64,000 bases of DNA, taken from Thiofilum flexile DSM 14609 (GTDB lineage: Bacteria; Pseudomonadota; Gammaproteobacteria; Thiotrichales; Thiotrichaceae). Below are positions 34,407 through 55,995 of the stretch, one piece after another. How positions within the stretch are numbered: position 1 is the first letter of the stretch; every line of letters begins with the position of its first letter. Position numbers and translations under genes: made by a program. The DNA is taken from contig NZ_KB904750.1 in the NCBI RefSeq assembly GCF_000380185.1, forward strand, positions 1 to 64,000, in the 5' to 3' direction. The notes under the pieces were generated by a model, which was given only the letters and a program-made list of their open reading frames with translations, was not told the DNA's origin and searched no databases.

Positions 34407-34898
34407 AATATCTCCTCCCCCCTATTGAAAAATAACAACAAGACCTTATTATTATAGAAATAAATAATAGCTATCTAGAGTTTAAAAATATATTTAACAC
34501 AAGCATCAAAGGGTCTACAGTATCTCAGGATTTATCTTATTATTGAGTGTAACTGTATGACTATGTATGTAAAAAATTAGAAGCTAAAACCGTAATACTT
34601 AAAGCGAATATTCATGCACCATTCAGTTAATATTACGTTCATGATTATAATAGCTATATTTTTAGTAATTTTCAATGATTTTTAATTAATCCCCATCACG
34701 CAATTAAAATTATCTTTATTAATAGCTAAAAATTAATCACTTTTTGTTTCCATCGTTAATTAAATTTCATTATTAATATAAATAGTTAACTTGTTGATTT
34801 TGCTATATTACAATAAGAAATTAGGCTTATATGCTACAAAGCGGCATTTCTGCCGCTAAACTGTCTCCAGAAACATGAAATTACTGTCTGTCAGATAT
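34407..34898. other. AT-rich intergenic region (492 bp)
   Basis: No open frame or RNA gene is recognisable. The left end holds the ribosome site and presumably the promoter of the LGFP gene (minus strand). The right end holds a GCGGCA-TTTC-TGCCGC hairpin near the 3' end of the deacetylase gene. The rest is low-complexity A/T-rich sequence that could be promoter DNA or a protein-binding AT tract. Confidence 0.5.
34841..34856 (-). terminator. Short GC-rich hairpin after the deacetylase gene
   Basis: A GCGGCA stem pairs with TGCCGC across a 4-base loop, followed in the minus direction by CTTTG. It lies 43 bases beyond the stop of the minus-strand deacetylase gene. The weak T tract makes terminator function plausible, not certain. 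Confidence 0.5.
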
Positions 34899-47418: not shown

Positions 47419-47441
47419 GCATTACATCACATCGGTTAGGT

Positions 47442-47549
47442 AAAAAGCCCACCAGTATTTCTGGAGCAGTCTTGGCGGCATCAATGCCGCCTTGTAGCGT
47501 ACAAGGACGTATTCACAGCGACTGCGGAAGACATACTGGTGGGCTCTTT
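47442..47549 (+). repeat. Structured intergenic repeat, copy 1 (short form, plus)
   Basis: Arms AGCCCACCAGTAT (47446-47458) and ATACTGGTGGGCT (47533-47545) enclose a 74-base core. The core carries GGAGCAGTC, a GGCGGCAT/ATGCCGCC hairpin, a CTTGTA-GCG-TACAAG hairpin and GACTGCGGAAG. CAGTC pairs with GACTG, leaving a GGA/GGA internal loop. It sits between convergent queC and the UspA gene, where it may also work as a terminator. Confidence 0.85.
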
Positions 47550-47571
47550 GCTCACAGACTACTAAACTAAA

Positions 47572-47599
47572 GAGCGTAACAAGTCACACTTGTTACGCT
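47572..47599 (-). terminator. Hairpin terminator of the TRAP/UspA operon
   Basis: AGCGTAACAAG and CTTGTTACGCT form an 11-bp perfect stem around a 6-base loop, followed in the minus direction by CTTTAGTTT. It lies 22 bases after the UspA stop. Confidence 0.7.
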
Positions 47600-47620
47600 T
47601 CATCTAGCAGAATACTTTTA

Positions 47621-48118
47621 TTAACTATTACTATTCGGTACTAAGAGCACCGGAATTTTACTGTGCTGGGTTAAAGTACGCGCGGTAGAACCTAATAAAG
47701 AATGCTTAGGTTTACCATTTGCATGCGTGCCCATCACAATTAAGTCCACATTATGCGTTTCGGCATAATGCTTAATGACCTCGGCGGGGTCACCCGCACT
47801 CACCGCAATTTTGTCAATAATTTCGTCTCTATCATGTAAAATATCATCCTCTTCCTCGCAATACTTATCTAAGCGCTGGCGCATGGTATCGGCGACTTGG
47901 CTGAGGCTTTCCTGCTCGACATTGGAGATATTTTTCTCTGGCAAATACATCGATAAAATCGCGCGTCCGGTAGAACCTAAAGGCGCTATGACATGCAGCA
48001 TAATAATTTTAGCTTTATGTATACGCGCCAAATTAATCGCTTGGCGAAATACCGGGCGTGTGTTAACGCCTAAATTCGTGGCATATAAAATCGTTTTAAA
48101 TGGCCTTACTTCAGGCAT
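47621..48118 (-). CDS. UspA-family universal stress protein, TeaD-like
   Basis: A 165-residue Usp domain. FKTILYATNLGVNTRPVFRQ opens the fold, KIIMLHVIAPLG follows, and the C-terminal DLIVMGTHANGKPKHSLLGS then T is the ATP-binding loop (G...GS spacing as in ATP-binding Usps, with Ala at one Gly position). It starts 12 bases after the dctM-like stop, so it is the last gene of the TRAP operon. In the Halomonas TeaABC ectoine transporter the same position holds TeaD, an ATP-binding Usp that modulates uptake; a similar role here is inferred. Confidence 0.82.
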   Translation of the reverse strand: MPEVRPFKTILYATNLGVNTRPVFRQAINLARIHKAKIIMLHVIAPLGSTGRAILSMYLPEKNISNVEQESLSQVADTMRQRLDKYCEEEDDILHDRDEIIDKIAVSAGDPAEVIKHYAETHNVDLIVMGTHANGKPKHSLLGSTARTLTQHSKIPVLLVPNSNS

Positions 48119-48130
48119 GGTAAGTGACTC

Positions 48131-49414
48131 CTATATCAAACCCATTAACTGTGGTAACCATAGACTAATAGCGGGTATATAGGTTATTAACATTAAAAAC
48201 GCTAACATGGTTAATAACCAAGGCCATACCGCTATTGTTAGTTCGGTAATACCCATTTTCGCAATCCCTGAAGCGACATATAAGTTCAAGCCTACAGGGG
48301 GGGTACACAAACCGATCTCCATATTGACCACCATAATAATCCCAAAGTGAATAGGGTCAATGCCTAATTTCATTGCCATAGGAAATAGAATCGGCGCAAA
48401 AATTAAGACGATACTCGAAGGCTCCATAAAGTTGCCTGCCATGAGTAATAAGATATTGACAATCAAGAGGAAAACAATAACGCCCATGCCTTGTGCTAAC
48501 ATCCAGTCTGCTAAGGATTGAGGAATATTTTCATTAGTCAAAATAAAGGAGAACATCACCGCATTGGTAATAATATAAAGCAGCATAGCCGACATGCTAG
48601 CGGAGTTTAACAGGACTTTAGGGACGTCTCTCAAACCCATATCTTTATACACAAATACCGCTATTACAAACGCATAGACCGCACTCATTGCTGCCGCTTC
48701 AGTCGGTGTAAAGAGGCCGGTATAAATCCCTCCCATCACGACTACAATCAAGAGTAAACCCCAAATGGAGTCCAAGAACGAGGTAAGACGCTGTTGAGTG
48801 CTCGCTTTAGGCTGACGGGGATAGTTAAACTTTTTCGCACGCCGCCAAGTGGTAAAACCTAAGAAACCCGCCAACATCGCGCCCGGAATCACGCCCGCCA
48901 TAAACAAAGCTCCTACTGAGCTATTGGTGGCGACCGCGTACATGACCATGACAATAGAGGGCGGAATCAAAATCCCTAAACCACCTGAGGTGGTAATAAC
49001 ACCGGCACCGAAATCTTTAGGGAAGCCCGCTTTTAGCATCGCGGGTAATAAAATTGCACCAATAGCCACAACGGTAGCAGGACTAGAACCAGAGACAGCG
49101 GCAAAAAGCGCACACGCCACCACGCCCGCTAAGCCTAAGCCACCATACCAATGCCCTACCATAGAGGAGGCAAAATTGATCATGCGTTTAGCGACCCCGC
49201 CGTGGGTCAAGAAATTACCCGCCAAGATAAAGAAGGGAATCGCCATAATTTCAAATTTTTCAATCCCCGTGAATAGCTTTAACGCTACCGCCTCAACGGG
49301 CACCGAACTCATGGTGAATAAAAAGGTTAATACGGTAAGCCCCAATGCAATCGAAATGGGCATGCCCGTCAGCATAAGAACCGTCAATAAACCAAAAATG
49401 ACTAATGCACTCAT
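48131..49414 (-). CDS. dctM: TRAP transporter large permease (DctM-like)
   Basis: A 427-residue protein with 11-12 hydrophobic helices. MPISIALGLTVLTFLF, IPFFILAGNFLTHGGVAKRM, VSGSSPATVVAIGAILLPAM and GLGILIPPSIVMVMYAVAT are characteristic DctM segments, and MEIGLCTPPVGLNLYVASGI closes the C-terminus. It carries the solute across the inner membrane with the Q subunit and the binding protein, driven by ion gradients. Its first base overlaps the dctQ stop. Confidence 0.92.
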   Translation of the reverse strand: MSALVIFGLLTVLMLTGMPISIALGLTVLTFLFTMSSVPVEAVALKLFTGIEKFEIMAIPFFILAGNFLTHGGVAKRMINFASSMVGHWYGGLGLAGVVACALFAAVSGSSPATVVAIGAILLPAMLKAGFPKDFGAGVITTSGGLGILIPPSIVMVMYAVATNSSVGALFMAGVIPGAMLAGFLGFTTWRRAKKFNYPRQPKASTQQRLTSFLDSIWGLLLIVVVMGGIYTGLFTPTEAAAMSAVYAFVIAVFVYKDMGLRDVPKVLLNSASMSAMLLYIITNAVMFSFILTNENIPQSLADWMLAQGMGVIVFLLIVNILLLMAGNFMEPSSIVLIFAPILFPMAMKLGIDPIHFGIIMVVNMEIGLCTPPVGLNLYVASGIAKMGITELTIAVWPWLLTMLAFLMLITYIPAISLWLPQLMGLI

Positions 49415-50037
49415 TATTTACGCCCCACTTTAATTTCTAAGGGTTCCGTTTCCTCTAAACCGTCGACATGACCGTGATCATGATGCGGTAAATCGCCCGT
49501 TTTTAAGAAAGTGATAAACACCTGTATAAAGCGAAAACACATGAGCGTAGACCCCAAAGGCACGGCTAAATACACCGCCCAAGTAGGCCATTCCAGATCG
49601 GGTGTAGTAGGCCCCTCGTAATACTCCCCAGTTTCTAAGCCAAAGGTCGTGAGTGTGGTATACGCCAGACCATTTTCCCATACCAAACGTCCGCCTAAGA
49701 TCGCTACTGTTGCGGTAAACAAAATACAAGCGCCCAAGGCAAAAAAAGTTGTAAGACGACGTTTATCAGCCGATAAACGATTGACTAAGACATCAACGCC
49801 CACATGAATACCTTGGCGTACCCCATAGGCTGCACCAAATTTAGCCATCCAGACGAATAAAATAATGCACAGCTCTTGTGCCCAGCTCAGATTGATCTTT
49901 AGCAATCCATCTTGCAGCGCACCTAGAGACGACATACCAGAGGTGTAACGATGCACAACGGCAACAAAAATAACTAACGTAGCCGCTGCAATCAAAAAGG
50001 TAATAAAGATTTCTTCCAGACGATCAAGCCATTTCAT
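49414..50037 (-). CDS. dctQ: TRAP transporter small permease (DctQ-like)
   Basis: A 207-residue protein with four membrane helices. MKWLDRLEEIFITFLIAAAT opens the first, LSWAQELCIILFVWMAKFGA is the DctQ motif, and WPTWAVYLAVPLGSTLMCFR is near the end. The start is ATG 50037 because the GGAGGAGG immediately before it makes a well-spaced ribosome site; an ATG 15 bases upstream overlaps that site. The C-terminal tail is His/Glu-rich (HHDHGHVDGLEETEP). It pairs with the large permease. Confidence 0.88.
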   Translation of the reverse strand: MKWLDRLEEIFITFLIAAATLVIFVAVVHRYTSGMSSLGALQDGLLKINLSWAQELCIILFVWMAKFGAAYGVRQGIHVGVDVLVNRLSADKRRLTTFFALGACILFTATVAILGGRLVWENGLAYTTLTTFGLETGEYYEGPTTPDLEWPTWAVYLAVPLGSTLMCFRFIQVFITFLKTGDLPHHDHGHVDGLEETEPLEIKVGRK

Positions 50038-50166
50038 AGTGGCCTCCTCCATAGCAAGCTTTAATAATCACACTCCAACTAATTAGCGGATAATTAGCTG
50101 GAGTGGAGAAACTTGAAGCGATTATGAGCTACCTGCAACAGGGACACAGGTAGCAAAGAACATTAA

Positions 50167-51171
50167 CTATTTAGCGGGATCAAAACCAGTCGTAGTATAA
50201 ATAGAGTCAATTAACTCTTTGCCAATACGATCAGACATTTCAGCATGCACAGGCGCTAGGGCTTTTTGCATGGCCTTAACTTCATCTTCAGTTGGGGTAT
50301 AAATTTCTGTTTTACCTGACGCTTTAACCGCTTCTAGTGATTTGTCATTTTCCTCTTTAGCGATTTGGTTGGCATAGTCAGTCGCCTCTTTTAAAGCTTC
50401 TTCTAAACCTGTACGTACGGCAGGATCTAACTTTTCCCAAAAACCTCTATTAGCAATCACGGCATAACCTAAATAACCATGATTCGTTAAACTGACATGC
50501 TTTTGCACTTCATGCATTTTTTGGGTGTAGAGATTAGACGGTGGGTTTTCAGTCCCATCCACAACGCCGGTTTGTAGGGCTTGATAGGTTTCAGAGAATG
50601 GCATGACTTGAGGATTAGAGCCCAATGCACGCATTTGCGCCTCTAATACTTTAGAGGACTGAATACGCATTTTTAAGCCTTTGTAATCATCTGGCATTTT
50701 TAAAGGCTTATTAGCACTCATTACTTTAAAGCCATTATCCCAGTAAGCCAGACCTTTCACGCCTTTTTTCTCAAGCTTGTCTAATAAACTCTTACCCACC
50801 TCACCTTCAGTAACTTTGTGTAGGTCTTCATAGTTACGGAAAATATACGGGAGATCAAAGACTTCAAACTCTTTTACCCCTAATGGGCCAAATTTAGCTA
50901 AGGAGGGGGCTAACATTTGTACAGCACCCATTTGCAGCGCTTCCATTTCCTCTTTATCTTTATACAGTGTGCTATTAGGGTAAACCTCGATTTTTACCGC
51001 ACCATTGGTTTTGGCTTCGGCTAATTCTTTAAACTTTTCAGCCGCTTTACCTTTTGGAGTATCGGGTGCAACCACATGGCTAAACTTAATCATGATAGGA
51101 TCAGCCGCTTGAGCTGATAAAGCAGCCACGCCAAACACTACAGCTACTGCCAAACTTACTAAAGGTTTCAT
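50167..51171 (-). CDS. dctP: TRAP transporter periplasmic solute-binding protein (DctP-like)
   Basis: About 334 residues. A signal peptide (MKPLVSLAVAVVFGVAALSA) is cut after QAA. IKFSHVVAPDTPKGKAAEKF is the DctP N-terminus, MRIQSSKVLEAQMRALGSNP contains the conserved Arg that clamps the carboxylate, and MPFSETYQALQTGVVDGTEN is the second signature. The substrate is a C4-dicarboxylate or similar organic acid. ATG 51171 is preferred, with GGAGAG six bases before it, over ATG 51183. It leads the dctPQM-usp operon. Confidence 0.9.
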   Translation of the reverse strand: MKPLVSLAVAVVFGVAALSAQAADPIMIKFSHVVAPDTPKGKAAEKFKELAEAKTNGAVKIEVYPNSTLYKDKEEMEALQMGAVQMLAPSLAKFGPLGVKEFEVFDLPYIFRNYEDLHKVTEGEVGKSLLDKLEKKGVKGLAYWDNGFKVMSANKPLKMPDDYKGLKMRIQSSKVLEAQMRALGSNPQVMPFSETYQALQTGVVDGTENPPSNLYTQKMHEVQKHVSLTNHGYLGYAVIANRGFWEKLDPAVRTGLEEALKEATDYANQIAKEENDKSLEAVKASGKTEIYTPTEDEVKAMQKALAPVHAEMSDRIGKELIDSIYTTTGFDPAK

Positions 51172-51357
51172 CACTCTCTCCATTTTAAACGGTTTGTGTC
51201 ACTTACTTAACCGGACTATTATTAAAGGAAAGGTAGGCGTTTGACTAGCCTTACCGCTAAATTTATTTAATCCGTCAATACTAATCAATGACTTATATAG
51301 CAACCTGACGATAGAATGCTAAATACTCGCGCAAAATGGTGAAAATAAATGCCTGCC

Positions 51358-51399
51358 ACCGCCTTGTTCACCTAGATTACCGCCTTGTTCACCTAGATT
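51358..51399. repeat. 21-bp perfect tandem duplication
   Basis: Two adjacent copies of a 21-base unit starting ACCGCCTTGTTCACC and ending TAGATT lie at 51358-51378 and 51379-51399. They are identical, so the duplication is recent or maintained. They lie ~190 bases upstream of the dctP start and could double a regulator site. Confidence 0.75.
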
Positions 51400-51539
51400 C
51401 TTGTCTATTACATTGAATGCGAATATTAACTACTTAATACTCATCCCATAAAAATTTAAGACACTAACCCTCTTTTTAAATTTTAAGCACTATAATCTAG
51501 ATTCAAATCCAACGAACCCTTTACTGTTAAGTAGGTATA

Positions 51540-51703
51540 CCAAAGTAATTGAGTATTTCTGGAGCAGTCTTGGCGGCAGGGATGCCACCTTGTAGCGTAC
51601 AGGGAGGTATTATTCGGCGCGTCCTTGCGCCTCTCAAGCTGGCGTGAAAAATCGTTCCTGACGATTTTTTCACAGCGGCGGAAGAAATATTCGATTACTT
51701 TGG
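51540..51703 (+). repeat. Structured intergenic repeat, copy 2 (long form, plus)
   Basis: The 20-base arms CCAAAGTAATTGAGTATTTC (51540-51559) and GAAATATTCGATTACTTTGG (51684-51703) pair fully, counting two G-U wobbles in plus-strand RNA. The core matches copies 1 and 4 (GGAGCAGTCTTGGCGGCAGG, ...CTTGTAGCGTACAGG). Before CACAGCG it has an extra ~60-base module with GGCGC/GCGCC and GTGAAAAATCG/CGATTTTTTCAC hairpins, shared with copy 3. It is in a divergent gap, so it is not simply a terminator. Confidence 0.85.
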
Positions 51704-51764
51704 CTCAAGTACTGACTCAGTATTCATTACAGATCACAACATATAGCAATTAATAGGAACGATT

Positions 51765-52127
51765 ATGCGTATACTATGGGGCGGACTTTTATGGTTAACA
51801 TTAAGCAGCTACGCAGGAGCCGCCAACCTCAATTGTACCGAGATTGAAAAATTCTCTGATGATGACTCCGCCATCGACCTGTGTCTAAAACAAGCGAATG
51901 ACACTCTCAATAGAAATTATGAGCAATTACAAAAGCGCTATAAAACGAGTCGGGAAAAATCAACCGCTCTACTCAATATGCAAATTGCGTGGTTAGCCTT
52001 ACGTGAAGCCCAATGCGATCTCGCCGGCTATAATGCTCAAACCAAGAATAGTTTAATGCGCACCGCACAACGTTGTGTCGTTAAGATGACGCTAAAACGT
52101 GCCCATGAATTAAGGGAAATGCCATAA
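51765..52127 (+). CDS. LprI-like (DUF1311) secreted protein
   Basis: A 120-residue protein. A signal peptide (MRILWGGLLWLTLSSYAGA) is followed by the LprI/DUF1311 pattern: ALNxTEI-type start LNCTEIEKFSDDDSAIDLCL, NDTLNRNYEQLQKRYK, MQIAWLALREAQCDLAGYN and a final RCVVKMTLKRAHEL. Four Cys are spaced as in lysozyme-inhibitor-like LprI proteins. Family members are periplasmic; lysozyme inhibition is shown only for some. It lies 41 bases before the thioredoxin-like gene. Confidence 0.75.
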   Translation: MRILWGGLLWLTLSSYAGAANLNCTEIEKFSDDDSAIDLCLKQANDTLNRNYEQLQKRYKTSREKSTALLNMQIAWLALREAQCDLAGYNAQTKNSLMRTAQRCVVKMTLKRAHELREMP

Positions 52128-52174
52128 AACTTATTTTATACTGTGCTGCTTAATACAACTCTTGTACCTTGACG

Positions 52175-52510
52175 ATGCTGCCAACTATCACGGATTTAAA
52201 CTTTTACGCTGTACTCGCCGAGCATCCTGATCCCACCTTAATACTCGTGACAGCACCCCACTGTGGCGCTTGTCAGGTATTAAGACAGGCGCTATCACAC
52301 TCAACTCTCGCAAATGCTATGCCGATTTTTGAGCTAGACGCCGTGCATAATTCTAGCATTGTACAAGAGTTGGAAATTTTCCATTTGCCCGCCCTGTTTT
52401 TGTATGTCAATGGTGAGTTTCACGCCGAGCTACGCACTGAACCTAAACCACGGGCGATTCAACAGGCGTTAGAACATGCCCTCACCCAACCGGCAGAGGA
52501 AGCACCTTAA
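52175..52510 (+). CDS. Thioredoxin-like protein
   Basis: About 111 residues with a thioredoxin fold: LILVTAPHCGACQVLRQAL carries the CxxC active site (CGAC, about residues 30-33), IFELDAVHNSSIVQELEIFH carries the central strand, and LPALFLYVNGEF has the cis-Pro. It has no signal peptide, so it is cytoplasmic. ATG 52175 is chosen; a TTG at 52169 would add two residues. The stop overlaps the ampD start by one base, so they are coupled. Confidence 0.75.
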   Translation: MLPTITDLNFYAVLAEHPDPTLILVTAPHCGACQVLRQALSHSTLANAMPIFELDAVHNSSIVQELEIFHLPALFLYVNGEFHAELRTEPKPRAIQQALEHALTQPAEEAP

Positions 52511-53100
52511 TGATTGATACCCAAACGGGCTTATATAGCTTAGCCCGTCAATGTCCTTCACCCAATCACGATGAACGTCCTGCAGGGTGTGTGCCTGATT
52601 TAATCGTGCTGCACAATATTAGCCTACCGCCTTATGAGTTTGGTGGGAATTGGATTGATCAACTCTTTACCAATCAGCTTGATCCTAATGCTCACCCTTT
52701 CTTTGCCACTATTACCCATTTACGGGTGGCGAGTCATCTCTTGATTCGTCGTCAAGGCGAAGTCGTGCAATATGTCCCCTTTCATCAAAGAGCTTTTCAT
52801 GCGGGGGTATCCCGTTATCAAGGGCGTGAGCGTTGTAATGATTTTTCTATTGGGATTGAAATCGAGGGGACAGATTTTGAGCCTTTTACAGAAGCACAGT
52901 ATTTAGCACTAGAGGCTTTATTACCCGAATTAGTCGAGGCTTATCCCACCTTAAGCCTTAAGCATATTACCGGGCATGAGCATATCGCCCCCGGACGTAA
53001 AACCGATCCAGGGCCTTATTTTGATTGGGCACGCTTATCTAAACGCTTAGGTGTCACATTACCCGCTGATGCAGGCAATGTATTGGGACATTTTGCCTAA
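52510..53100 (+). CDS. ampD: 1,6-anhydro-N-acetylmuramyl-L-alanine amidase AmpD
   Basis: A 196-residue zinc amidase that cleaves anhydro-muropeptides during peptidoglycan recycling in the cytosol. LIVLHNISLPPYEFGG, VASHLLIRRQGEVVQYVPF and the CNDFSIGIEIEGTDFEPFTE segment are AmpD motifs. The zinc ligands are His in LHNIS, His in ITGHEHIAPGRKTDPGPYFD and Asp in that same segment. No signal peptide is present, which fits AmpD rather than AmiD. It is coupled to the thioredoxin-like gene. Confidence 0.93.
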   Translation: MIDTQTGLYSLARQCPSPNHDERPAGCVPDLIVLHNISLPPYEFGGNWIDQLFTNQLDPNAHPFFATITHLRVASHLLIRRQGEVVQYVPFHQRAFHAGVSRYQGRERCNDFSIGIEIEGTDFEPFTEAQYLALEALLPELVEAYPTLSLKHITGHEHIAPGRKTDPGPYFDWARLSKRLGVTLPADAGNVLGHFA

Positions 53101-53110
53101 GTAGCCCCTA

Positions 53111-53252
53111 AAAAGTAGTCGAGTATTACCGCCACAGTCGCTGTGAAAAAATCGTCAGGAGCGATTTTTCACGCCAGCTTGAGAGGCGCAAGGACGCGCC
53201 GAATAATAAATCCCTGCCGCCAAGACTGCTCCGGTAATACCCGACTACTTTT
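53111..53252 (-). repeat. Structured intergenic repeat, copy 3 (long form, minus)
   Basis: Arms at 53111-53131 and 53232-53252 pair over 21 bases. Read on the minus strand the one imperfect pair is G-U; on the plus strand it would be A-C. The core on the minus strand reads GGAGCAGTCTTGGCGGCAGG and shares the extra hairpin module of copy 2, but lacks ~26 bases holding the CTTGTAGCG hairpin. It lies between convergent ampD and der. Confidence 0.85.
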
Positions 53253-53268
53253 AGTCGTTAACAGATAC

Positions 53269-54699
53269 TTATTTTGAATTCTTTTTAATAAATTTCATCA
53301 GGCGCTTTTTCTTATGAATCTGACGTGGCGTTAGAGTATTACGCTTGCCTTCATAAGGATTTTCGCCGGTTTTAAACTCTAGTTTAACCTGAGTTCCTTT
53401 GAGTTTTAGCGTTTTGCGGAAATAGTTAATCAGATAGGTCTCATAGCTAGGCGGTATTTTCTCGGTCTGATTACCGTGAATAATAATTAAAAACGGGTTG
53501 CTGCCCCCCTGATGCGCATAGCGCAATTTAATTCGGCGTCCATTGATAATAGGCGGCTGATGCATACGTAAAGCGGTTTCTAAAATACGGGTTAAACGTG
53601 AGGTAGGCACTTTGAGCATGGCAGAATCATAGGCTTCTAATACCGACTTAAAGAGCAACCCTACTCCAGTACCATGCTTAGCGGAAATAAAATGCTTATC
53701 TGCAAAGTCTAAAAAGGGTAGTTTTAGTTCTAATTGATGCTTAATCAAATCACGCTGTTCGGTATCAATACCATCCCATTTATTAATGGCTAAGACTAAG
53801 GCTCGCCCCGCATCAATGATCATCCCTAATAATGTAGCATCCTGATCGGTAATCGCATCATGCGCATCCACTAGCATAATCACCACGTGGGCCGCTTGAA
53901 TAGCTTCCATCGTTTTGATAATACTAAACTTTTCTACCGTTTCACTTACCCGACTGCGGCGACGCATCCCGGCGGTATCAATGAGTGTATAAGCTTGCTC
54001 ATCACGCTCAAAGGGGATAAAAATACTGTCTCGTGTCGTACCGGGCTGATCAAAGGCAATAACGCGCTCTTCACCTAAAATACGATTGACTAAGGTTGAT
54101 TTACCTACATTAGGTCGTCCAACAAAGGCAATTCTAATCCGCCCCTCGGTATCGACTTCATTACCCTCCTCATCCAATAAGGGTGGTAATTCCTCTGCCA
54201 CTTCAGGCTCAGGAAACGCCTCTAAAATCTCCTCAATCATCGAGGTCACACCACGATTATGGGCTGCTGCAATGGTAAATACATTAGTAAAACCAAAGCC
54301 ATAAAACTCAGAAGCAGCTTGATCTGCATCAATACGGTCGATTTTATTGATAACTAGGAACACAGGCTTATTGCTGACACGCAATAAATCCGCAATCATT
54401 TCATCCGCCCCGGTGCGCCCGTGTTTACCATCCACGATAAACAGTACGGCATCGGCTTCAGCAATCGCTGCTTTACTTTGCTTCGCCATGTGTTCATCAA
54501 TGCCGACTTCTTCGCCACTTAAGCCGCCAGTGTCAATGACATGATATTCTCGCTCATCCAACTCGCCCAAACCATATTTACGGTCACGAGTTAAACCCGG
54601 GAAATCCGCTACTAGCGCATCACGCGAGCGAGTCAGGCGATTAAATAAAGTAGATTTACCCACATTTGGGCGACCGATGAGAGCAAGAACTGGTTTCAT
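53269..54699 (-). CDS. der: GTPase Der (EngA), ribosome assembly
   Basis: A 476-residue protein with two tandem GTPase domains. The first has ALIGRPNVGKSTLFNRLTRS, DFPGLTRDRKYG and VINKIDRID; the second has AFVGRPNVGKSTLVNRILGE, DQPGTTRDSIFIPF and AINKWDGID. The C-terminal KH-like domain (RILETALRMHQPP..., YINYFRKTLKLKGT) is complete, and the basic tail ends KKKRLMKFIKKNSK. Der is an essential 50S assembly factor. Its stop is 16 bases from repeat copy 3. Confidence 0.96.
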   Translation of the reverse strand: MKPVLALIGRPNVGKSTLFNRLTRSRDALVADFPGLTRDRKYGLGELDEREYHVIDTGGLSGEEVGIDEHMAKQSKAAIAEADAVLFIVDGKHGRTGADEMIADLLRVSNKPVFLVINKIDRIDADQAASEFYGFGFTNVFTIAAAHNRGVTSMIEEILEAFPEPEVAEELPPLLDEEGNEVDTEGRIRIAFVGRPNVGKSTLVNRILGEERVIAFDQPGTTRDSIFIPFERDEQAYTLIDTAGMRRRSRVSETVEKFSIIKTMEAIQAAHVVIMLVDAHDAITDQDATLLGMIIDAGRALVLAINKWDGIDTEQRDLIKHQLELKLPFLDFADKHFISAKHGTGVGLLFKSVLEAYDSAMLKVPTSRLTRILETALRMHQPPIINGRRIKLRYAHQGGSNPFLIIIHGNQTEKIPPSYETYLINYFRKTLKLKGTQVKLEFKTGENPYEGKRNTLTPRQIHKKKRLMKFIKKNSK

Positions 54700-54756
54700 G
54701 ACAGAGGTTTATTCAAATAAGTAACATCAAGCGCGAGAGGATACCACAAAGTGGAA

Positions 54757-55377
54757 CTAAAGCGCTGTGCTATCTGAGTTTGGTTCTAGTGGTTCATCAA
54801 ACTCCGCTAAAAACGCCCAGTCTATCGTTAAGTCATTGAAGGTGATCACCCTACTCACCTCATCCATCCCTAACATCAAAGGCTTACCATATTTTCCCTG
54901 TGCATCCAGCACATAAATCATCACCCAACGCTCCTCAGGATGGACAATCCAATATTCTTTAACACCATGTTTTTCGTATAACTCGCGCTTGAGATTCATA
55001 TCTTTAAGCGCTGTTGAGGTCGATAGCACCTCAATAATCCAATCGGGAGCACCACGACAACCACGCCGATCTAGTTTAGTTTTATCACAAACCACCACTA
55101 TATCAGGCTCTACAACCGTATCGGTTTTGTCATCGGATTGATTAGGTTTAGGTAAACGCACGGCAAAGGGCGCAACATAAGCTCTGCAATTTGCATTTTG
55201 CGCTTTGAGATAGTCACGGATTTGTCCACCCACCTCAAAAACCACTGCTTGATGAATACGCAAAGGAGCCGTCATAGCATAGGCAGTACCCTCTATTAAC
55301 TCCCAACGCTCCTCTTCAGGCCAACATTGGTAATCAGCATAGGTGTAAGTTCGTGCTAATTTCTCAGCGGTTGCCAT
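54757..55377 (-). CDS. Uma2-family (DUF820) PD-(D/E)XK nuclease-fold protein
   Basis: About 206 residues. TYADYQCWPEEERWELIEGT is the Uma2 N-terminus. VVEPDIVVVCDKTKLDRRGC and APDWIIEVLSTSTALKDMNL carry the conserved Asp and Glu of the PD-(D/E)XK-like core, and KRELYEKHGVKEYWIVHPEE follows. The function is unknown; the families are abundant in cyanobacteria and mobile in others. ATG 55377 has a GGAGG site seven bases before it and is preferred over one 45 bases upstream. Confidence 0.8.
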   Translation of the reverse strand: MATAEKLARTYTYADYQCWPEEERWELIEGTAYAMTAPLRIHQAVVFEVGGQIRDYLKAQNANCRAYVAPFAVRLPKPNQSDDKTDTVVEPDIVVVCDKTKLDRRGCRGAPDWIIEVLSTSTALKDMNLKRELYEKHGVKEYWIVHPEERWVMIYVLDAQGKYGKPLMLGMDEVSRVITFNDLTIDWAFLAEFDEPLEPNSDSTAL

Positions 55378-55434
55378 AGCTAAACCTCCGTGATTGAGTA
55401 CTTTGACTATAGCATAGGGCAAATAGTAAAAAAC

Positions 55435-55851
55435 TTAGGCCTTTTTCAACCACGGCACATACATCACGGCCTCACCTTGTATCAATACTTTGCCATCCTT
55501 ATCGGTACAGGTGGTTTTTAAGGTTACAATCGGCTTACCTTCACGAATACTGGTAATTTCCACCGTTGCGGTGACATCCGTATTCAAATAGACAGGGGCT
55601 TTAAAGTTCAGATTTTGGGTCATGTAAATGGAACCATGGCCGGGTAGTTCTTCACCTATTAAGCCTGAAAACATACTCCCCACCAACATACCATGCACAA
55701 TACGCTGCTTAAATTGGGTCGTTGCAGCAAATGCCTCATCGAGATGTACCGGATTATGGTCTGTAGATAAATCGGCAAAGATACGAACATCTTGATCGGT
55801 AAACTGACGTGTCACCGATACCTTATCACCTACTTTTAACTCTCTTGGCAT
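55435..55851 (-). CDS. MaoC-family (R)-specific enoyl-CoA hydratase (PhaJ-like)
   Basis: A 138-residue hot-dog-fold enzyme. RIFADLSTDHNPVHLDEAFA contains the catalytic Asp and His (D..HNP.H), and IVHGMLVGSMFSGLIGEELP contains the overhanging segment that fits CoA. It hydrates trans-2-enoyl-CoA to (R)-3-hydroxyacyl-CoA, linking beta-oxidation to polyhydroxyalkanoate synthesis or an alternative route. Its location beside beta-oxidation genes supports this. The repeat copy 4 lies between its start and the ETF-QO gene. Confidence 0.85.
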   Translation of the reverse strand: MPRELKVGDKVSVTRQFTDQDVRIFADLSTDHNPVHLDEAFAATTQFKQRIVHGMLVGSMFSGLIGEELPGHGSIYMTQNLNFKAPVYLNTDVTATVEITSIREGKPIVTLKTTCTDKDGKVLIQGEAVMYVPWLKKA

Positions 55852-55885
55852 AAATTATTCCTTAAGTTTTCTAGGCCGAATAGTT

Positions 55886-55995
55886 GAAAAGCAAAGGGAT
55901 GTTTCTGGAGCAGTCTTGGCGGCAGGGATGCCGCCTTGTAGCGTACATGGATGTATTTACAGCGACTGTGGAAGAAATGTCCCTTTGCTTTTTGC
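55886..55995 (+). repeat. Structured intergenic repeat, copy 4 (short form, plus)
   Basis: Arms AAAAGCAAAGGGATGTTTC (55887-55905) and GAAATGTCCCTTTGCTTTT (55974-55992) pair over 19 bases with two G-U wobbles in plus-strand RNA. The core is nearly that of copy 1, with GGCGGCAGGGATGCCGCC and CTTGTAGCGTACATGG hairpins and GACTGTGGAAG. Both flanking genes are on the minus strand, so the core is opposite to their direction. Confidence 0.85.

What the first reader, a model, noticed from the sequence alone, without database searches (positions are those of the whole stretch)
47442..55995. Family of structured intergenic repeats with copy-specific complementary arms
Four copies (47442, 51540, 53111, 55886) share a core (GGAGCAGTCTTGGCGGC...) but have different outer arms, each complementary to its own partner. 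The variable middles of the arms are CCCACC, TAATTG, TAGTCG and CAAAGG. Every non-Watson-Crick position noted in the arms of copies 2, 3 and 4 (five in total) is a G-U pair only on the strand where the core reads forward. That suggests selection for an RNA structure, or a mechanism that copies one arm from the other. The predicted fold is a long stem with a GGA/GGA internal loop, topped by two hairpins. Copies differ in orientation and gene context, including a divergent gap, so they are not simply terminators.
Basis: partly seen in the sequence, partly recalled or inferred. Interest (0 to 1): 0.75.

Follow-up and report, generated by a model that had tools for sequence, protein, structure and literature searches.

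The report
Dispersed double-hairpin palindromic RNA repeats
The four repeats belong to a family of about 100 dispersed folded elements in this genome, and to a group spread across Gammaproteobacteria that includes a known Yersinia repeat (YPAL); all carry the same double-hairpin tip that looks built to bind the global regulator CsrA, on stems whose sequence differs from copy to copy but always pairs.

Summary
The core occurs about 110 times in this 3.8 Mb genome (none for the reversed control), and a decayed fifth copy lies in the window. In 66 aligned copies, 20 of 22 arm pairs show changes on both sides that keep pairing. Across 90 copies from many gammaproteobacterial genera, arms (median 30 bp) differ per copy yet pair, and wobbles favour the core strand (G-U 185, A-C 103).

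What it is: a long copy-specific stem capped by two hairpins with ANGGA loops. The same cap is in the published Yersinia repeat YPAL/RU-2 and, below threshold, in Rfam TwoAYGGAY, whose CsrA binding others predicted. Copies sit mostly just after stop codons, enriched between convergent genes. Some subfamilies behave like MITEs.

Most likely: a mobile, dispersed RNA element that folds on one fixed strand and binds CsrA/RsmA dimers. Fold and strand bias are shown; CsrA binding is inferred. Against simple 3'-UTR function: the wobble bias does not depend on the direction of neighbouring genes, so selection on a single-stranded DNA transposition intermediate remains possible. New variant of a known kind.

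The parts
47441..47550 (+). Copy 1, whole element (unique arms GCCCACCAGTAT), between convergent genes queC-like (ends 47418) and an UspA-like gene (47621-48118, minus)
   Evidence: model R1 110.9 bits, copy in training set; model R2 63.5 bits, copy in training set
47441..47462 (+). Copy 1 left arm
47474..47491 (+). Copy 1 hairpin 1 (GGCGGC-ATCAAT-GCCGCC); loop GGA lost in this copy
47493..47517 (+). Copy 1 hairpin 2; GUACAAGGACGU resembles the CsrA SELEX consensus RUACARGGAUGU (consensus recalled from memory)
47529..47550 (+). Copy 1 right arm
51539..51704 (+). Copy 2, whole element with 58-nt insert, in a divergent gap; flanks TAAGTAGGTATACC / GGCTCAAGTACT are the MITE-like ends of the consensus subfamily
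51612..51669 (+). Insert in hairpin 2 of copy 2 (shared by copy 3 and other copies); on the reverse strand it reads as GGA-loop hairpins
53109..53254 (-). Copy 3, whole element, with the same insert and with part of both hairpins lost, between convergent genes
55885..55994 (+). Copy 4, whole element (unique arms GCAAAGGGATG), between tandem minus-strand genes, core antisense to them
   Evidence: model R1 117.2 bits, copy in training set
55918..55935 (+). Copy 4 hairpin 1, loop AGGGAT
55937..55961 (+). Copy 4 hairpin 2, GUACAUGGAUGU
34779..34890 (-). Fifth, decayed copy: hairpin 1 stem kept, loop AGAAAT, hairpin 2 gone
   Evidence: (pair I2)

Best explanation
These are dispersed copies of a mobile structured element of the YPAL type. 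One fixed strand folds into a long copy-specific stem (about 22 bp here, 25-40 bp elsewhere) capped by two hairpins with ANGGA loops, in this genome with a GGA/GGA tandem-GA loop in the stem. Shown: the fold, the paired divergence of the arms, the strand bias of wobble pairs, class-wide distribution, dispersal, and placement just beyond gene ends. Inferred: as RNA the cap is a two-site binding platform for one CsrA/RsmA dimer, each hairpin loop filling one site, so that transcripts carrying it titrate CsrA or are regulated by it. Inferred: the arms serve only to hold the cap, so they drift freely as long as they pair, helped by occasional hairpin-templated copying of one arm onto the other.
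For: Loop pattern: in 66 own copies that were not selected on loops, hairpin 2 reads ACA-N-GGA in 66/66 and hairpin 1 has GGA in 63/66; the N between A and GGA varies (A 32, G 30, T 3, C 1 in hairpin 2) while its neighbours do not, which is the ANGGA signature. Mean minor-allele fraction is 0.010 in the GGAs, 0.048 in the rest of the cap and 0.147 in the arms. Covariation: 20 of 22 arm pairs have both-side changes, 187 such cells, exceeding all shuffles; in family relatives 36 of 42 pairs and 296 cells. Strand bias. Rfam TwoAYGGAY is the best full-length sub-threshold family on the core strand in several copies (E 0.0074, 0.09, 0.21); the RMfam paper predicted that TwoAYGGAY binds CsrA and noted its tandem GAs and unconserved outer stem (PMC4333381). 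The printed YPAL/RU-2 repeat holds the same cap (PMC2759123), and a 98%-identical copy in L169, not used for training, scores 63.8 bits with model R2. csrA is present in this genome and in 34 of 36 carrier genomes.
Against: No binding or expression data. In tandem gene contexts the core is sense or antisense equally often (16:16 in this genome, 19:21 class-wide), and the wobble bias is as strong where neighbours would transcribe the opposite strand (33:10) as where they transcribe the core strand (35:14). No promoter excess lies upstream of the core strand. Conservation of the UUYAC bulge goes beyond what CsrA needs. csrA enrichment among carriers is not significant (p 0.14). TwoAYGGAY's gathering score is not reached anywhere tested.
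Confidence: 0.55

Rival explanations
1. The fold is a mobility signal: a transposase or similar enzyme acts on the folded single strand (DNA or RNA) of the element, and the copies have no cellular function after insertion.
For: Wobble bias independent of the direction of neighbouring transcription; equal sense and antisense orientation; patchy distribution with up to 345 copies in one genome; a TA target-site duplication at an empty site in Methylotuvimicrobium; MITE-like ends in 40 own copies; published mobility of YPAL (PMC2229807); a decayed copy in the window.
Against: Unique-arm copies show no common ends, yet keep pairing and a modest G-U excess (18:6). ANGGA loops with a free N suit CsrA better than a generic transposase site. 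No transposase that recognises the cap was identified (none was searched for systematically).
Confidence: 0.35
2. The elements are bidirectional transcription terminators or 3'-end stabilisers that work as long hairpins on either strand.
For: They lie just after stop codons (median about 17 nt) and are enriched between convergent genes, 31 of 72 against 64 of 388 background spaces (p 2e-6). In this genome many stem feet are A-tracts and T-tracts. Orientation is irrelevant, as searches show.
Against: Class-wide copies have no U-tract after the stem (mean 1.6 T in 8). Copy 1 has a separate terminator-like hairpin beside it, and copy 2 sits in a divergent gap. Terminator function does not explain conserved ANGGA loops, the UUYAC bulge or a one-strand wobble bias.
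Confidence: 0.2
3. The copy-specific arms are pre-existing palindromes (terminators) into whose loop the cap inserted.
For: YPAL target sites are reported to span or adjoin dyad symmetry (PMC2229807). At one unique-arm locus (L133) two genus mates have an ordinary terminator about 30 nt after the same stop codon.
Against: Arms of copies within a genome keep a positional consensus (AAAGTAAT..GGGTATTTCT here; related arms in three copies of L212), so they descend from one ancestor and then diverged. The L133 comparison is at 70% identity with a different downstream gene, so it is inconclusive.
Confidence: 0.15

Closest known systems
YPAL / RU-2 (Yersinia palindromic sequence, 167-168 bp)
   Same: Same two-hairpin cap (CAAGGATG...GAGCCTACATGGATGTATTTACGGCG) on a long stem; dispersed between genes; tens to more than 100 copies per genome; mobile.
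   Different: Described in Yersinia and Erwinia; one 168-bp sequence is highly conserved across copies, and its arms are unlike those here; no CsrA link made in the papers read.
TwoAYGGAY RNA (Rfam RF01731)
   Same: Two hairpins with A-N-GGA-Y loops at the tip of one stem, tandem-GA loop in the stem, poorly conserved outer stem; full-length alignments on the core strand.
   Different: Gathering score never reached (best 35.6 against 43 bits); loops here are ANGGAY rather than strictly AYGGAY; junction sequence differs; not described as a dispersed repeat in what was read.
Ysr224 (Rfam RF02770, Yersinia sRNA 224)
   Same: Its model covers the same cap, read on the opposite strand (up to 51 bits).
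   Different: Annotated as an sRNA on the antisense strand; below the gathering score of 70; one-genus family.
CsrB/CsrC/RsmX/Y/Z sponge RNAs
   Same: GGA motifs in hairpin loops, in pairs suited to a CsrA dimer.
   Different: Those are single-locus sRNA genes with promoters and many sites; these are about 100 dispersed two-site elements with no promoter signal.
ERIC, REP/BIME and other MITE-like repeats
   Same: Dispersed intergenic palindromes, close to gene ends, some with MITE-like ends.
   Different: Those have fixed stems (from general knowledge); here the stem varies by copy and the cap is the conserved part.

Membership tests
YPAL-type repeats | Two-hairpin cap CA.GGAYG...TACA.GGAYGTATTYAC.GC on a long stem | tested here: met
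   Pattern matches the printed YPAL; a 98%-identical copy in L169 scores 63.8 bits with R2, E 6e-16; no hit in 40 Mb of random sequence
YPAL-type repeats | Similarity over the whole 168 bp, arms included | tested here: not met
   Only the cap is shared; arms look unrelated, so kinship is at superfamily level
YPAL-type repeats | Mobility with target-site duplication | tested here: inconclusive
   TA duplication at one MITE-type site in Methylotuvimicrobium; no close relative of this genome held
TwoAYGGAY RF01731 | Score above 43 bits | tested here: not met
   Best 35.6 bits; 0 of 11 genomes over cut-off
TwoAYGGAY RF01731 | Two loops AYGGAY | tested here: inconclusive
   Loops are ANGGAY, N being G or A more often than Y
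TwoAYGGAY RF01731 | Tandem GA in the stem | tested here: met
   GGA/GGA loop in this genome's copies; present in only some other lineages (e.g. L185, L194, L219)
CsrA-binding sponge RNA | Paired ANGGA hairpin loops | tested here: met
   63/66 own copies have GGA in both loops
CsrA-binding sponge RNA | Binds CsrA/RsmA in cells or in vitro | not testable with these tools
   no binding data
CsrA-binding sponge RNA | csrA in the same genome | tested here: met
   C24:74601-74756, 90.6 bits
Intrinsic terminator | Stem followed by a U-tract | tested here: not met
   No T excess after the stem class-wide, although A/T-rich feet are common in this genome
MITE | Terminal inverted repeats with target duplication | tested here: inconclusive
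   40 of 85 own copies have both TAAGTA-type ends, 28 have neither

The most novel reading that the evidence does not exclude
Hundreds of dispersed copies form a genome-wide CsrA sponge carried by a mobile element: the element's spread sets the cell's free CsrA level. Its arms are renewed by hairpin-templated copying, so each copy acquires its own stem, and it is transcribed from the core strand independently of the neighbouring genes.
Probability: 0.2. Interest if true: 0.85.

Novelty: new variant of a known kind. Interest (0 to 1): 0.62.

Why it matters
It joins separately named things (YPAL/RU-2, Ysr224 and, more loosely, TwoAYGGAY) into one superfamily found in 36 of 369 sampled Gammaproteobacteria by a strict pattern, reaching 345 copies in Methylotuvimicrobium buryatense. 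If the cap binds CsrA, a mobile repeat would be a major and overlooked input to a global regulator. The copy-specific paired arms offer a natural record of compensatory evolution and of hairpin-templated mutation.

Tried and rejected
Rfam at gathering threshold: no hit. Plain intrinsic terminators: no U-tract class-wide. Standalone sRNA with its own promoter: no promoter excess on the core side. Function as a sense 3'-UTR element: orientation is random and the wobble bias does not follow neighbouring transcription. Common terminal motif beyond the arms: none. Empty-site test for unique-arm copies: attempted in the genus of G033, inconclusive at 70% identity; the Methylotuvimicrobium comparison gave one clear empty site, for a MITE-type copy only, and showed nested inserts inside the hairpins. 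csrA co-occurrence: in the expected direction, not significant. De Gregorio 2006, the original YPAL paper, was not held, so its claims are taken from PMC2229807. Canonical CsrB/Rsm sRNAs were not searched for in this genome.
Full report
CHECK. All five wobble positions in the arms of copies 2-4 are G-U on the core strand. Copy 1 has a T-C and an A-C mismatch instead. A fifth, decayed copy lies at 34779-34890 on the minus strand.

COPY NUMBER. The core occurs 110 times within three mismatches in the genome (3.79 Mb, 71 contigs), against zero for the reversed pattern. A covariance model of 66 copies finds 134 places, of which about a quarter to a third are antisense self-hits at the same coordinates, so roughly 100 copies. 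No element lay inside a gene among 32 checked.

STRUCTURE. The consensus is a stem of about 22 bp, a GGA/GGA internal loop, a 6-bp helix, hairpin 1 (GGCGGC-ANGGAY-GCCGCC) and hairpin 2 (UGUAGCGUAC-ANGGAN-GUAUUYACA). In 66 copies 94.4% of cells pair; 20 of 22 arm pairs have changes on both sides; all five measures exceed every shuffle and every slid version. The controls do not remove relatedness of copies. However, family relatives with unrelated arms give 36 of 42 pairs with both-side changes and 296 such cells (that alignment was fitted to the model, so it leans towards the structure), and 90 class-wide copies with different arms were paired without any model.

STRAND. Wobbles favour the core strand: G-U 91 to A-C 11 in the arms and 122 to 9 in the core of own copies. 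Counted as distinct position-and-state events the arm excess shrinks to 15 to 8, not significant. Unique-arm copies give 18 to 6 (p 0.02). Class-wide, with G-U and A-C scored alike, it is 185 to 103 (p 1.6e-6), and 53 copies favour G-U against 16.

CONTEXT. In this genome 31 of 72 copies with both neighbours called lie between convergent genes, 32 between tandem genes and 9 between divergent genes, against 64 convergent of 388 spaces without an element (p 2e-6). Genes were called by simple scripts, not a trained gene finder, and the two calls used different scripts; within one script alone the contrast is 11 of 30 against 64 of 388 (p 0.011). Copies begin a median of about 17 nt beyond stop codons. 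In tandem settings the core is sense or antisense equally often. The class-wide G-U excess is the same when the neighbours would transcribe the opposite strand (33:10) as when they transcribe the core strand (35:14), and weaker in divergent gaps (16:13). So the strand under selection is not simply that of the neighbouring mRNA. Either the element is transcribed on its own (no promoter excess found), or the strand matters during mobility, as single-stranded DNA or RNA.

RELATIVES. A motif of the second hairpin, GCNTACANGGAYGTATTYACNGC, occurs in 36 of 369 sampled genomes of the class, the reversed control in none. A model of the cap finds 28 of 398 genomes sampled from the phylum, all in this class. 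Named carriers include Marinobacter, Halomonas, Halopseudomonas, Rheinheimera, Zobellella, Microbulbifer, Ectothiorhodospira, Thioalkalivibrio, Sedimenticola, Thermomonas, Methylocucumis and Methylotuvimicrobium.

KNOWN KIN. The printed YPAL/RU-2 sequence of Yersinia holds the same cap and folds alike (PMC2759123). A 98%-identical copy in viral contig L169 scores 63.8 bits with a model not trained on it. Rfam Ysr224 is the same cap on the other strand. TwoAYGGAY aligns full length on the core strand but below threshold, and no genome tested passed its cut-off. Others had predicted that TwoAYGGAY binds CsrA and noted its tandem GA loop and unconserved outer stem (PMC4333381).

MOBILITY. Forty of 85 own copies end in TAAGTAGGTATACC / TAAGTACTTGAGCC, with the core in either orientation relative to those ends (30 and 10); 28 copies have neither end. 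In M. buryatense one MITE-type copy has an empty site in a sister species with a TA duplication. YPAL is reported to be mobile, with target sites at or next to dyad symmetry (PMC2229807). Arm copying is suggested by L048, L057 and L089, where one GGA became TCC.

MECHANISM. The invariant A, free N and invariant GGA in both loops, the two GGAs 23 nt apart, fit a CsrA/RsmA dimer (from general knowledge of CsrA, not tested here). I rate CsrA binding as slightly more likely than not, a purely mobile reading as the main rival, and terminator function as a local by-product.

Noticed in passing
window 51612-51669 and 53109-53254: A 58-nt insert sits in hairpin 2 of copies 2 and 3 and of several other copies; on the reverse strand it folds into hairpins with GGA loops, as if an element of similar design had inserted antisense.
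   Followed up: partly
window 34779-34890 (minus): Decayed fifth copy: hairpin 1 stem intact but loop AGAAAT and hairpin 2 gone, so not all copies are maintained.
   Followed up: partly
G033, 11 model hits (L124, L133, L138, L142, L146 among them): Ten of eleven copies in this complete genome lie on the same strand of the sequence record (two-sided p 0.012), with unique arms; unexplained.
   Followed up: no
Methylotuvimicrobium genomes, L299-L358: Other small hairpin repeats (ATGGATGGCATGAATGCAGATTTTGCAGGAG; CCCAGCACCTAAATT) have inserted into the hairpins of these elements between sister species, i.e. nested hairpin repeats.
   Followed up: partly
Rfam RF02770 (Ysr224), seen at L149, L188, L201: The Rfam family appears to model the YPAL-type cap on the strand opposite to the one with conserved wobble pairing; its strand may be wrong or the RNA antisense.
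   Followed up: partly
own genome, outer ends of 40 copies: The core stands in either orientation (30:10) relative to the MITE-like outer ends, suggesting inversion between the paired arms.
   Followed up: partly
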